Source of the DNA: Planctomycetota bacterium
Lineage (GTDB): Bacteria; Planctomycetota; Planctomycetia; Pirellulales; Pirellulaceae
Length of the DNA stretch: 32,479 nucleotides
Direction: 5' to 3'
Assembly: GCA_024276655.1 (NCBI GenBank)
Contig: JAJRWU010000035.1
Coordinates: 1-32,479 of the forward strand
Shown here: positions 14,466 to 30,741 of the stretch, piece by piece
Layout of the letters: each line of letters starts with the position of its first letter
Numbering within the stretch: the first letter of the stretch is position 1
Made by a program: the position numbers and the translations under genes
The notes under the pieces: generated by a model
The model's input: the letters and a program-made list of their open reading frames with translations, nothing else
Told to the model about the DNA's origin: nothing
The model's database searches: none

Positions 14466-14775
14466 GCATGAGAGTTCTTCAGCGGTTTTAATGGGTCGTG
14501 CTGGAATGCTGGCGCCTCATGCCGACCTTTGTCGAACTTGAGCGGGTATTTTCTGCGCGCCGCGCCGCTTTGCTCTCATCACCCCGAGTCATCCCAGTGA
14601 ATCGGACTGCAATCACCCACCAAAAACACCGAAGAACCGAGCAATTTAAGGCGAGGAAACATGATTGGTGTATTTCCAGTAGCCGCTCAGTTAGAATAGT
14701 GGAGCGTCGTTCACCAAATTTTGCTGCTGACATTTCACAACTCACAAGTTTCACAACCCACAAGGTAGTCGTCCG
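14466..14775. repeat. Gap containing a truncated copy of the fold-back MITE end
   Basis: Positions 14473-14495 match 19 of 23 bases of the terminal repeat of the element at 17376-17846. The resemblance continues to about 14525, including GGCGCCTCATGCC against GGGCACCTCATGCC in the reverse-complemented right end. No second end or target duplication is seen. The remaining ~250 nt hold no convincing gene. A GGTAG sequence shortly before 14776 may serve the next gene as a weak ribosome site. Confidence 0.55.
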
Positions 14776-15830: not shown

Positions 15831-15889
15831 CACGCAACGTTTTGGCGACGTTTTCCGTCGCCGCTCCTCCAAGAAAAGTAGCGCACAAT

Positions 15890-17290
15890 ATGAGCCAAGC
15901 AAGATTCCATCGGCCAACGTTTATTTTCGTGGCGACGATCCTTTCAGTCGTCGCCACGATTTCAGTGGTGGCAGCGCCCGTCGCAGCGCAAGAAAAACGG
16001 CCCACACGGCCCAACGTGTTGTTGATCTACACCGACGCCCAAGGTTCGGTCGACCTCAACTGCTACGGCGCCCAAGACCTCGCCACGCCGCATCTCGACG
16101 CACTCGCGGCGCGGGGCGTTCGCTTCACGCAAATGTACGCGCCCTCGGCCATTTGCTCGGCTTCTCGGGCCGGGCTTTTAACCGGCCGCTTTCCGGCCCG
16201 CTCGGGCGTTCCGGGGAATGTGTCGTCGCAAAAAGGCCGGCCCGGAATGCCGGCCGAACAAGTCACGATGGCCGAAATGTTCCAAGCCGCCGGATACGCC
16301 ACCGCCCATGTTGGTAAATGGCATCTCGGTTTTACACCCGAAACCATGCCCAACGGCCAAGGCTTCGAGCAGTCGTTCGGCCACATGGGCGGCTGCATCG
16401 ACAACTACTCGCACTTCTTTTATTGGAACGGTCCCAACCGGCACGACCTCTGGCGAAACGGCCAGGAAATTTGGGAAGACGGGAAATTCTTCCCCGACCT
16501 CATGGTCCGGGAGTGCTCGCACTTTCTAGAAACGCGAGCCGCCGGGAAACGCCCGTTCTTTCTGTATTGGGCGATCAACGTCCCGCATTATCCGCTGCAA
16601 GCGACGAAGCGTTGGCGTAAGCATTACGAGAAACTGGCCTCGCCCCGGCGGGAATACGCGGCCTTTGTCTCGACGATGGATGAACGCATAGGGCAAGTGT
16701 TGGCCAAGCTCGATTCCCTAGGCTTGCGCGAAAATACGATCGTCGTGTTTCAGTCCGACCACGGCCATTCCACCGAGGAACGCACGTTTTTCGGCGGCGG
16801 CAACGCCGGTCCGTATCGCGGCGCCGAGGCCTGTCTGTTTGAAGGAGGACTGCGCATCCCCTCGATCGCCGCTTTTCCCCACGTCATTCCCGCAGGCGAG
16901 GTGCGCGACCAATGGGCCACCGGTTGCGACTGGCTGCCCACGCTGGCCAAGCTCTGCCGGGTCGCGTTGCCGCAGCGCACGCTCGACGGCAAGGAGTTAA
17001 CCGCCGTGCTCAAATCGTCGGCGGCGCCGAGTCCTCATCAGCGCTTTTATTGGCGGTTGGGCGTTGGCGCCAAAGCACAGTGGGTGGTGCGGGAAGGCGA
17101 CTGGAAACTACTGGGCAATCCTCGCGATACGTCGGCTCCGCGCAATTCGCCGAAACTCGGGGTCCGGTTTTTGGTCAATTTGCAAACCGACATTGGCGAA
17201 ACGAAGAACGTGGCGGCGCAACACCCCGAAGTGCTGGCTCGCTTGGAAAATCTGCAACAGGAATTTGAAGCCAGCATCGCGAGCAAGTGA
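15890..17290 (+). CDS. Sulfatase (formylglycine type, arylsulfatase-like) with altered active-site positions
   Basis: The 466-residue protein has an N-terminal signal region (about 9-33, ending APVAAQ) and then the sulfatase fold: PNVLLIYTDAQG, ATPHLDALAARGVRFTQMYA, the modification site CSASR with Cys89, LLTGRFPARSGVPGN, HVGKWHLG (Lys143, His145), SDHGHSTEERTFFGGGNAGP and LFEGGLRIPS. Such enzymes remove sulfate esters from sulfated glycans after the Cys is converted to formylglycine. Two deviations are clear. The usual metal-binding Asp-Asp pair reads Asp49-Ala50, and the third position of the CxPxR motif is Ala. Activity is therefore uncertain. ATG at 15890 is chosen over a TTG 16 codons earlier because it gives a normal signal peptide. 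Confidence 0.9.
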   Translation: MSQARFHRPTFIFVATILSVVATISVVAAPVAAQEKRPTRPNVLLIYTDAQGSVDLNCYGAQDLATPHLDALAARGVRFTQMYAPSAICSASRAGLLTGRFPARSGVPGNVSSQKGRPGMPAEQVTMAEMFQAAGYATAHVGKWHLGFTPETMPNGQGFEQSFGHMGGCIDNYSHFFYWNGPNRHDLWRNGQEIWEDGKFFPDLMVRECSHFLETRAAGKRPFFLYWAINVPHYPLQATKRWRKHYEKLASPRREYAAFVSTMDERIGQVLAKLDSLGLRENTIVVFQSDHGHSTEERTFFGGGNAGPYRGAEACLFEGGLRIPSIAAFPHVIPAGEVRDQWATGCDWLPTLAKLCRVALPQRTLDGKELTAVLKSSAAPSPHQRFYWRLGVGAKAQWVVREGDWKLLGNPRDTSAPRNSPKLGVRFLVNLQTDIGETKNVAAQHPEVLARLENLQQEFEASIASK

Positions 17291-17298
17291 AACGCGAA

Positions 17299-17375
17299 TT
17301 GTTGGAGTTCCTACTTAAGCCTGTATTCCGTTGCTGAAAATCGTGAACGCGGCCTGAAGGCTGAACATCATGAAG
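17299..17375. repeat. Degenerate GTTGGAGTTC-type palindrome next to the MITE
   Basis: TTGGAGTTCCTACTTAAGCC near 17300 and CCTGAAGGCTGAACATCA near 17353-17370 form an imperfect inverted repeat. They resemble the outer inverted-repeat pair at 30527-30741. The fold-back element begins directly after it, so the MITE may have inserted at the edge of this older repeat. Confidence 0.4.
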
Positions 17376-17846
17376 GGTTCTTCACCGGTTTTAGTGGCTG
17401 TTTCCGTTCGCTTCCCATGGATGACGCGTGTTGTTGAGAACAAGGTGGATTGGCGTCGCGGAAACCCTCCGCTCAAGCTCGACAAAAGGGGCCCGCCCCT
17501 ACCGCCTTCTCTTTCGCACCGACCCCATGGAACGCGGGGCGAGGGCCGATGCGACAGCGAAGGCGAAAGGGGCTCGCGGGAGCCCCGTTTCAAAAGAAGA
17601 CTGAAATCACAGCCTCCCCAAGCGATTTGGTTGATGTTTCTCCGGCGTTGTACGACCTTGTTTTTATGTCCCACAAAGTTTTGCCGAGCCCCTTCGTCTT
17701 CGCCGTCACGTCGGTCCTGCGCCCCGCACTTGAGGGCCGGTGTGATGGCGAAGACGACAGGGGCGTCCCCCCTTTGTCGAGCCCGAACGGAGGGGGGCAT
17801 GAGGTGCCCACATTCAGGACCGGGCCACTAAAATCGGTGAAGAACC
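17376..17846. mobile_element. Fold-back MITE-like element with 23-bp TIRs and near-perfect 8-bp target duplication
   Basis: The ends are GGTTCTTCACCGGTTTTAGT (17376 on) and the reverse complement at 17824-17846, matching over 23 bp with one mismatch. The flanking octamers are TCATGAAG (17368-17375) and TCGTGAAG (17847-17854), 7 of 8 identical, consistent with a target duplication. The inverted repetition continues inward: GCTCGACAAA, the CCGCCTTCTCTTTCGC-type block and the GCGGGGCG...AAGGGGCTCG block all recur reverse-complemented on the other side. The whole element is thus an imperfect hairpin with a central ~100 nt unpaired part (about 17590-17690). No transposase frame is present. The 8-bp duplication would fit mobilisation by an ISL3-like transposase, but that is inference. 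A truncated relative lies at 14473-14525. Confidence 0.75.
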
Positions 17847-17954
17847 TCGTGAAGCAATCTGTTACACGCCCCACGCCTACTTTTGGGCTGGCGCTGCTTG
17901 TCACGGACCGTTCTCACAACGCGGGGCGAGATCACTGCGACATCGGCATGTGGT

Positions 17955-18242: not shown

Positions 18243-18705
18243 TTCAACCCCTGTTGATTCATTTTTTGGACGCCTATCGTCTGACACTCTCAATCGAATA
18301 GATTGAGCGTACCAGATGCGGAAAACATGTCAAACTTTTGTCACGACGTGAGTTGCAGCGAATTTCGTTGCGCGAATGGACCGAGCAATTCTCGCGAGGC
18401 GGAAACAATATTGCCCTTGGCTACTTTGGGAACGCCGCTATTGTTTGCACCACGAAAAGCGCGAAAAAAAAGGCGATTCGGGGCGGCTCTCGGTTGGAAC
18501 TCGGGTTGCGGCTTGTGCCGTTGCCGGGGGCCCTATATATAAGTGTGGAAGGGGGCGGGCGGCGAGAGTGATCGATTCGGCCGCGCTTTACCATGCTCGG
18601 CCGGCCTGAATTTTCGTTTTGCTCCTGTAATATGTGCGGATATCTCTTTTTTGCCGTGTGGCGTAGATAACAACCACCCAGGCAATCCAACAAAAGTAAA
18701 GAATC
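18243..18705. other. 463-nt gap upstream of uppS: no gene seen
   Basis: The gap contains a perfect 7-bp inverted repeat CTCAATC-GAATA-GATTGAG at 18289-18307, near the start of the minus-strand small gene, and a candidate promoter at 18513-18541. Open frames in it lack ribosome sites and protein-like composition. A short AACAATA...TATTGTT inverted pair around 18405-18443 is noted without interpretation. Confidence 0.5.
18513..18541 (+). promoter_or_regulatory. Candidate promoter for uppS-cdsA
   Basis: TTGTGC (18513-18518) is followed after 17 nt by TATATA (18536-18541) in an otherwise GC-rich region. This resembles a sigma-70-type -35/-10 pair. It would leave a leader of about 155 nt before the GTG start of uppS. 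Planctomycete promoters are poorly defined, so confidence is low. Confidence 0.35.
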
Positions 18706-19455
18706 GTGACGGAATCGGATCTAGCCGACGAAGCGTTATTGTCGTTGCCGGCCGAACGGCGGCCGCGTCATATCGCGATCATCATGGACGGCAACGGCCG
18801 CTGGGCGCGGCGCCAAGGCCTGCCGCGCATCGAGGGCCATCGTCGAGGCGTGAGCAGCGTGCGCAATACGGTCGAAGAATGTGCGCGGCTCGATATCGAA
18901 CAACTCACGTTATACTGTTTGTCGAGCGAAAACTGGAAACGGCCGCAAATCGAGCTTGATTTTTTGATGCACCTGCTCGAACAGTACATGATCGAGGAGC
19001 GGGCCACGATCATGCGGCAGAATATTCGCGTGAGCATCATTGGCCGCCGCGACGGCATTCCAAAAGCGGTGTTTTCGGAAATGGAAAAGACGGTCGACTT
19101 GAGCGCCAACAACACGGGAACCCGGCTCTGTCTGGCGATCAATTACGGTGCTCGCGGAGAAATTGTCGACGCTGTCAAGAATATCGTCGCCGAAGCCCTG
19201 GCCGGCGAGATTGATCCCAACGAACTCGACGCCGACGCCATCTCGGCCCATTTGTATACCGCCGGAATGCCCGACCCCGATCTGCTCATTCGCACGGCCG
19301 GCGAAATGAGAATCAGCAATTTTCTGCTCTGGCAGATCAGCTACGCCGAGCTCTGGATCACCCAAAAATGTTGGCCAGAATTTCAGACGTCCGACTTACA
19401 CCAAGCCATTCAAGACTTCGCCAAACGCGACCGACGTTTTGGCGGACTCACCTAG
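18706..19455 (+). CDS. uppS: Isoprenyl transferase (undecaprenyl diphosphate synthase)
   Basis: The 249-residue protein is a cis-prenyltransferase that extends farnesyl diphosphate with isopentenyl diphosphate to make the C55 carrier lipid for envelope polymers. The family motifs are complete: HIAIIMDGNGRWA with catalytic Asp28, GHRRGVSSVR, LYCLSSENWKRP, AINYGARGEIVDA and DLLIRTAGEMRISNFLLWQ, with Ala where most relatives have Ser. The length is normal. It starts at GTG with a poor ribosome site; no better start lies nearby and the conserved part begins 20 residues later. Its last 17 nt overlap the start of cdsA, indicating coupled translation of two lipid-pathway enzymes, as in many bacteria. 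Confidence 0.95.
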   Translation: MTESDLADEALLSLPAERRPRHIAIIMDGNGRWARRQGLPRIEGHRRGVSSVRNTVEECARLDIEQLTLYCLSSENWKRPQIELDFLMHLLEQYMIEERATIMRQNIRVSIIGRRDGIPKAVFSEMEKTVDLSANNTGTRLCLAINYGARGEIVDAVKNIVAEALAGEIDPNELDADAISAHLYTAGMPDPDLLIRTAGEMRISNFLLWQISYAELWITQKCWPEFQTSDLHQAIQDFAKRDRRFGGLT

Positions 19456-30526: not shown

Positions 30527-30741
30527 ATTCGCGCCGTTGGAGTTCAAGCTTTAGCATCAAGCGGAAAAATTAGTGTCGTAGCCATGCTCGCCAGAGCGTG
30601 GGATGGTTCACCGCTCACCCACCGTCTGGCGACGATGGCGACACAAATGCGACAGTTATTTATCGAGCGGTGCTTAGCTTGCTTTTTTATCGCGTTTCCC
30701 GGGGCAAAACAAGCTAAAGCTTGAACTCCAACGGCGCGAAT
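30527..30741. repeat. Perfect 29-bp inverted-repeat pair flanking a nested repeat
   Basis: Positions 30527-30555 (core GCGCCGTTGGAGTTCAAGCT) and 30713-30741 are exact reverse complements over 29 bp. Between them lies a family 2 palindrome (30551-30674) plus about 40 nt. Weaker relatives of the arm occur near 6171 and 17299. It looks like a small palindromic element into which another repeat has inserted. It also lies between the stop of the giant cytochrome gene and the stop of the opposing DUF1499 gene, so the hairpin may serve as a 3' end for both. Confidence 0.8.
30551..30674 (-). repeat. Palindromic dispersed repeat, family 2, copy 2
   Basis: Reverse-complemented, it matches 13281-13403 almost throughout, including the GCACCGCTCGATAAA end, the TGTCGCATTTGTGT segment, GGTGGGTGAGCGGTGAACCA and GACACTAATTTT. 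One inner arm differs (TGGCGAGCATGGCTA against TGGCGACGATGGCTA), so the inner palindrome is slightly broken in this copy. Confidence 0.85.

What the first reader, a model, noticed from the sequence alone, without database searches (positions are those of the whole stretch)
17368..17854. Fold-back MITE with 8-bp target duplication and no transposase
The 471-bp element has 23-bp terminal inverted repeats with one mismatch, flanking octamers TCATGAAG/TCGTGAAG (7 of 8), and inverted repetition that continues far inward, so nearly the whole element can fold into one long imperfect hairpin. Long fold-back MITEs are uncommon in bacteria. The arm divergence suggests an old element or compensatory change. 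Mobilisation in trans by an ISL3-like transposase is inferred from the duplication length only.
Basis: partly seen in the sequence, partly recalled or inferred. Interest (0 to 1): 0.62.

Follow-up and report, generated by a model that had tools for sequence, protein, structure and literature searches.

The report
Jumping-DNA remnant with two hairpins
A 471-base stretch between two genes of an uncultured planctomycete is an old, gene-less jumping-DNA element whose ends match a known transposase family and whose inside carries two copies of a hairpin that also occurs alone and inside other jumping elements of related bacteria.

Summary
In detail: a 471-bp element (17376-17846) with 22/23 terminal inverted repeats, 7/8 flanking repeats, strong fold-back (z -8) and no recognisable gene. 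It belongs to a dispersed family: 15 further partial alignments in its genome (one to its own opposite arm), a full-length 85% copy with a perfect 9-bp flanking repeat in the one congeneric genome among 60 searched, and a 166-bp short form elsewhere in the window. Intact ISL3-family insertion sequences in relatives have similar ends (17-20 of 23), so mobilisation by an ISL3 transposase is well supported, though the ISL3 genes found in this genome are broken.

The hairpin's stem covaries (10 of 22 pairs in 18 copies) and it occurs in at least 27 of 196 genomes of the order: paired in ISL3-ended MITEs of four genera, single inside ISL3 elements, within IS110 elements, and as at least 16 solo copies in one genome. 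Whether the stem matters as DNA or RNA is undecided. Verdict: a new variant of a known kind (ISL3 MITE); the spread of the hairpin is the open point.

The parts
17376..17846 (.). 471-bp non-autonomous element (two-hairpin MITE with ISL3-type ends)
17376..17398 (+). left terminal inverted repeat GGTTCTTCACCGGTTTTAGTGGC
17824..17846 (-). right terminal inverted repeat (22/23)
17368..17375 (.). left flanking octamer TCATGAAG, probable target duplication
   Evidence: 7/8 match with the right one
17847..17854 (.). right flanking octamer TCGTGAAG, probable target duplication
17465..17579 (+). hairpin module, type A, read inward from the left end
   Evidence: (110 bits with model R1, which was built with this copy)
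17681..17794 (-). hairpin module, type B, read inward from the right end
   Evidence: (108 bits, same remark)
17580..17680 (.). spacer between the hairpins; alignable in the congeneric copy
14473..14638 (.). 166-bp short form with ends of the same family and no complete hairpin; same position in the congeneric genome G001 (contig C138, L112)
   Evidence: position and subterminal likeness read by eye

Best explanation
The element is a MITE: DNA with ISL3-type ends and no gene, moved in trans by an ISL3-family DDE transposase that cuts at the GG ends and leaves an 8-9-bp duplication. Shown: ends, copies, lack of a recognisable gene, similar ends on intact ISL3 elements in relatives. Inferred: the movement itself and which transposase did it; the G014/G028 type fits the ends best. 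Inside it carries two old hairpin modules, A and B, facing each other. The same module lies between the end and the transposase gene of another ISL3 group, so the element was probably built from two such end-plus-hairpin halves facing each other (inferred). The stem is kept by paired changes; the likeliest causes are palindrome correction during replication or a role of the hairpin DNA in transposition (inferred; an RNA role is not excluded). This copy is old and probably immobile now.
For: 22/23 ends and 7/8 flanking octamers. 18 places in the genome match the end pattern with at most one mismatch, 0 for the reversed control pattern. 15 further alignments of 73-93% in the genome, all partial, one to the element's own opposite arm (40 of 43 candidates scored). 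Full-length copy at 85% in G001 at another place, with CGGCAGTTC directly on both sides. Ends of ISL3 elements of G028 and G014: 17-20 of 23 bases as in the window's ends; a G014 end and an end of the G001 copy share ATTTTAGTGGCTGATTT. In G059 two-hairpin MITEs of 317-318 bp have perfect 8-bp repeats at two loci and 6/8 at a third, of ten loci looked at, and an ISL3 element of that genome has the GGTCCATCCGGGTTT end too. Hairpin between end and transposase gene, same reading direction, at two ISL3 loci of G059 and one of G039. No Pfam match in four frames across the element. Arms: A-A 93% and B-B 92% between the two congeneric copies, A-B 67-69% within a copy; the split of B types from the rest has support 87 (IQ-TREE) and 0.99 (FastTree), and in all seven two-armed elements in that tree (four genera) the arms lie on opposite sides.
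Against: No intact ISL3 gene in this genome: only C26 (two overlapping frames) and a fragment on C41, both nearest to the hairpin-bearing ISL3 of G059; the C26 end agrees at only 15 of 23. The best-matching ends (G014, G028) are on elements without a hairpin match. No clean empty site: in G001 left homology stops at 17366 and the right side is other sequence until about 18460. Flanking repeat only 7/8, 7/8 at a G001 copy (L111), and none at two other two-ended copies of this genome. Of 18 ISL3 loci searched for ends, clear ends came from seven loci of four genomes, and the G059 one has no good duplication (3/8). Origin by joining two halves is inference: the arms differ about as much as copies from different elements.
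Confidence: 0.85

Rival explanations
1. The hairpin is the real mobile unit: a palindromic repeat that spreads on its own and has also settled in ISL3, IS110 and MITE elements; the ISL3-ended MITE is one of its vehicles.
For: 17 loci of G193 aligned: conservation only over the module, flanks unrelated; 16 of the 17 hold one copy in the stretch fetched, L259 an inverted pair. Hairpin within the shared stretch of six of six aligned IS110-linked copies of G059, and a weaker match directly behind an IS110-like gene in G246. At least 27 of 196 genomes of the order (at most 19 candidates scored per genome).
Against: No duplication, end or transposase is known for the solo form; G193 and G157 have no Y1 (RAYT-type) match. 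The ISL3 ends suffice for the window element's own movement.
Confidence: 0.3
2. The stem is conserved because a transcript works as a regulatory RNA or terminator (for the ISL3 transposase or neighbours).
For: 10 of 22 pairs in 18 copies with changes on both sides, more than in any of 500 shuffles; 13 of 22 in 57 matches, an alignment fitted to the model and including six antisense matches. Imperfect pairs lean to one strand: 19 G.T against 28 A.C cells, but 16 of the 19 are at one pair; 9 of 10 pairs, and 20 of 27 pair-by-genome cases, lean to A.C, which is G.U on the reverse strand (sign tests about 0.02).
Against: That strand is opposite to the transposase gene in the ISL3 elements. Other mismatches (35) are as common as A.C (28). 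No Rfam family in the window. Cells share ancestry, so the tests are weak.
Confidence: 0.2
3. Degraded gene or chance palindrome, not a mobile element.
For: Open frames of 104-204 aa cross it.
Against: No Pfam match; 0 such inverted pairs in 40 shuffles; repeated family.
Confidence: 0.02

Closest known systems
187-nt MITE of Microcystis aeruginosa attributed to an ISL3-family transposase (PMC11448079, passages seen)
   Same: ISL3-type ends (there GGCTCTTCG), 8-nt direct repeats, stem-loop, no transposase gene
   Different: Ours is 471 bp, holds two covarying hairpin modules, looks old, and no intact partner was found in the genome
ISL3-family insertion sequences (PF01610) of planctomycetes, e.g. 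in G028, G014, G012, G059, G039
   Same: ends and repeat length; one group also carries the hairpin
   Different: those encode the transposase
REP palindromic repeats (PMC3733652, passages seen)
   Same: dispersed palindromes; reported in Planctomycetes too
   Different: REPs are 20-40 bp and often go with RAYT genes; ours is ~113 nt, and G193 and G157, with many copies, gave no Y1 match
QMITE2 of Coxiella burnetii (review PMC10969869, passages seen)
   Same: 23-29-bp ends, 7-9-bp repeats, stable fold; the review also tells of truncated Coxiella MITEs that resemble REPs
   Different: other sequence, core of 113-145 bp, other organism

Membership tests
MITE | terminal inverted repeats | tested here: met
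   22/23
MITE | target-site duplication | tested here: inconclusive
   7/8 here; 9/9 in the G001 copy; 7/8 at L111, 8/8 at two G059 loci; none at two other two-ended copies of this genome
MITE | no coding capacity | tested here: met
   no Pfam match in four frames
MITE | several copies per genome | tested here: met
   15 further partial alignments and 18 end matches in the genome; the only full-length copy found there is this one
MITE | shares ends with an autonomous element | tested here: met
   17-20 of 23 with G028 and G014 ends, in relatives; in this genome only a broken gene whose end agrees at 15 of 23
ISL3-derived element | ends beginning GG like those of ISL3 elements and an 8-bp duplication | tested here: met
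   duplication 7/8 here
ISL3-derived element | moved by an ISL3 transposase | not testable with these tools
   needs a transposition assay
REP/REPIN with RAYT | associated Y1 transposase | tested here: not met
   no PF01797 match in G193 and G157, which hold many copies of the hairpin; 6 of 8 genomes searched have a match, this genome included
Known structured RNA | match to an Rfam family | tested here: not met
   0 matches in the window at gathering score

The most novel reading that the evidence does not exclude
A ~113-nt hairpin, kept by paired changes, is an independent mobile palindrome of this planctomycete order that moves alone by an unknown, non-RAYT route and repeatedly becomes part of unrelated transposons (ISL3, IS110) and of their MITEs, perhaps as a shared aid or regulator of transposition.
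Probability: 0.25. Interest if true: 0.62.

Novelty: new variant of a known kind. Interest (0 to 1): 0.4.

Why it matters
ISL3-driven MITEs are in print, so the element itself extends a known kind to planctomycetes. If the hairpin spreads on its own or serves transposons of two unrelated families, it would be a new sort of shared mobile palindrome and a case for testing how hairpins are kept and used in transposition.

Tried and rejected
Plasmid collection, distant mode: no match. Rfam: nothing. Named genomes by the neighbouring sulfatase-like protein: 80 loci kept of 450; only one is close (90%, record QIKY01000404.1, isolate SZUA-33, whose contig length 13644 equals that of G001 contig C138), the rest are at 66% or less, too far for empty sites. 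Empty site in G001: locus found, but rearranged. Recent inverted duplication of one arm: rejected, since arms within an element are 62-73% alike while the same arm in two species is 92-93%. RAYT as mover of the solo hairpin: no Y1 match in G193 or G157. Phylum-wide search with model R1: 3 of 294 genomes, own included, at 1e-4 (12 candidates scored per genome, strict filters, so a lower bound).

Withdrawn on checking: I first read as showing no strand bias of wobble pairs and took that as evidence for a DNA role. One search shows that 16 of the 19 G.T cells come from one pair and that by pair and by genome the imperfect pairs lean to the reverse strand. The DNA reading is therefore only a preference, and I raised the odds of an RNA role from 0.12 to 0.2.

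Rows dropped: of 26 modules collected, 22 went into A1 (left out: L027, L108, two of L118), and 18 into A2 (left out: two G045 rows, G001 contig C101, one near-identical G059 row), before folding and model building. In some searches six antisense matches of 57 were removed (51 rows, 49 distinct, 19 genomes); one search counts all 57 (54 distinct). One search printed 0 for pairs spanning over 150 nt because of a sign error in my script; one search is the corrected count. One search failed before the tree was built and was repeated. Support labels were printed after re-rooting; one search reads them from the unrooted tree.

Full report
What is there. The window is contig C277 of a 5.96-Mb, 328-contig genome of a planctomycete (judged from its relatives: the closest named record found is a Planctomycetaceae MAG). 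Between a sulfatase-like gene (15842-17290; name recalled from its sequence) and the gene starting at 18706 lies a 471-bp stretch, 17376-17846, with 22/23 terminal inverted repeats and flanking octamers that agree at 7 of 8. It folds far better than shuffles (z -8.0 as DNA; z -12.3 as minus-strand RNA); 128 of 174 pairs join left and right halves. Four frames that cross it match no Pfam family.

It is a repeated element. It aligns to 15 further places in its genome at 73-93% identity, all partial, one of them its own opposite arm (40 of 43 candidates scored). The end pattern with at most one mismatch has 18 matches, the reversed control none. With both ends at no more than one mismatch, three whole elements appear: the 471-bp one, a 176-bp one on C53 and a 166-bp one in this window, 14473-14638. 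By eye the 166-bp form keeps both subterminal regions but not the hairpins and has a counterpart with matching flanks in G001, so it is older than the split of these two species. Of 60 genomes searched, own included, 8 have a match. G001, the one congeneric genome among them, has a full-length copy at 85% elsewhere, with CGGCAGTTC directly on both sides.

The ISL3 link. PF01610 (ISL3 transposase) occurs in 19 of 60 genomes, own included. I searched 18 loci for ends; clear ends came from seven loci of four genomes: G012 (2), G028 (3), G014 (1), G059 (1). G028 has 14 full-length genes, of which three loci were examined: right end GGCTCTTCGTCGGTTTTAGTGGC, 20 of 23 as in the window's left end, left end 17 of 23; repeat 8 of 8 at one, and CCCCCTGGG or its complement (9 bp) at two by reading across the two framings printed. 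G014 ends give 19 of 23 with the left and 20 of 23 with the right window end; its repeat is shifted by one base. G012 has two copies with perfect 8-bp duplications and a different end, GGTCCATCCGGGTTT. In G059 an ISL3 element with that end, but without a good duplication (3/8), coexists with 317-318-bp two-hairpin MITEs with the same end. Of ten G059 loci examined, two have perfect 8-bp duplications, one 6/8, six gave nothing, and L120 gave two matches that belong to a pair of IS110 copies. G130 and G083 have similar two-hairpin elements with such ends, read by eye; I saw no clear duplication there. In the window's own genome the ISL3 genes are broken: C26 (two overlapping frames) and a fragment on C41. 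Both are nearest to the hairpin-bearing ISL3 of G059 (C26 65% identity; C41), not to G014/G028; G001 has a 45-residue fragment nearest to G028 and one nearest to the G059 type. The C26 end agrees with the window end at 15 of 23. So the likely partner is gone, or was not assembled.

The hairpin module. Positions 95-215 and the complement of 305-427 of the 487-bp query recur in relatives without the rest of the element. A covariance model from 18 copies (R1) finds it in 27 of 196 genomes of the order at 1e-3 (at most 19 candidates scored per genome) and in 3 of 294 genomes across the phylum at 1e-4 (12 scored), own included in both; strict filters make these lower bounds. Settings seen: (a) two inverted copies inside ISL3-ended MITEs in g1 (G000, G001), G059, G130, G083; (b) one copy between the end and the transposase gene, read in the same direction, at two ISL3 loci of G059 and one of G039 (for the matches); (c) inside the stretch shared by six aligned IS110-linked copies of G059 (family by Pfam for one of them), with a weaker match (41 bits) directly behind an IS110-like gene in G246 (that family name is recalled); (d) in G193, 17 loci aligned, conserved only over the module, of which 16 hold one copy in the stretch fetched and one, L259, an inverted pair.

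How the hairpin is kept. In 18 copies 10 of 22 pairs have changes on both sides, covariation score 0.248 against 0.104 in shuffles; in 57 matches 13 of 22 (antisense matches included, alignment fitted to the model). In 49 distinct rows from 19 genomes the main stem has 795 Watson-Crick cells, 19 G.T, 28 A.C and 35 others. An RNA role should favour G.U on one strand. The totals are near even, but 16 of the 19 G.T cells are at one pair; 9 of 10 pairs lean to A.C, and counted by pair and genome it is 7 against 20 (sign tests about 0.02). This is a modest lean to a reverse-strand RNA, opposite to the transposase gene, and speaks against my preferred DNA reading (a DNA hairpin, or correction of imperfect palindromes by template switching; mechanism recalled, not tested). 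I leave it undecided with DNA somewhat ahead, because other mismatches are as common as wobble pairs and the cells share ancestry.

Age and origin of the two-arm form. Arm A is 93% and arm B 92% identical between the two species' copies; A and B are 67-69% alike within a copy. In a tree of 34 modules the B-type group has support 87 (IQ-TREE) and 0.99 (FastTree), and in the seven two-armed elements included (window, G001, three of G059, G130, G083) one arm is in it and the other outside. Either the two-arm form is old, or unlike halves were joined more than once; a recent fold-back duplication is excluded.

Empty site. In G001 the neighbouring genes are on contig C357; left homology ends at window 17366, right homology resumes near 18460, and other sequence lies between. 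The MITE is absent there, but the site is not a clean empty site.

Print. Nine full-text searches were made in an open-access library only. PMC11448079 (passages) describes a 187-nt MITE with ISL3-type ends and 8-nt repeats, so ISL3 MITEs are known. PMC10969869 (passages) reviews bacterial MITEs and its main text holds no 'ISL3'; PMC3733652 (passages) reports REPs in Planctomycetes. A 439-bp MITE is named in the abstract start of PMC3934969 (search listing). As far as listed titles and abstract starts show, none describes this hairpin module or a planctomycete MITE of this kind.

Noticed in passing
window 30527-30741: 29-nt perfect inverted repeat around a unit of about 127 bp (30551-30677) with 39 further long alignments at 87-98% identity in the genome (40 of 382 candidates scored): a very abundant, recent repeat.
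   Followed up: partly
window 17304-17366: Just left of the element lies what looks like a short inverted repeat (GTTGGAGTTC...GAACTCCAAC type); similar ends are seen around the copies in L105 and L106 and in the repeat at 30527-30741. The MITEs may favour it as a target (by eye).
   Followed up: no
L256 1954-2063; L293 1501-1609: IS110-type elements carry the hairpin upstream of the gene (G059) or a weaker match right behind it (G246), regions where IS110 bridge RNAs lie (recalled); overlap not tested.
   Followed up: no
L126 / L131: At the matching locus G001 has what looks like a Doc/Fic-type toxin-antitoxin pair (recalled from sequence, not searched) where the window has the MITE and a 112-aa frame without Pfam match.
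   Followed up: no
L273-L287, L259, L260 (G193): The hairpin copies of one genome come in more than one loop subtype.
   Followed up: no
alignment A4 (hairpin matches of the window and 39 loci), main stem: Imperfect pairs lean to wobble on the reverse strand except at one pair; cause unknown.
   Followed up: partly
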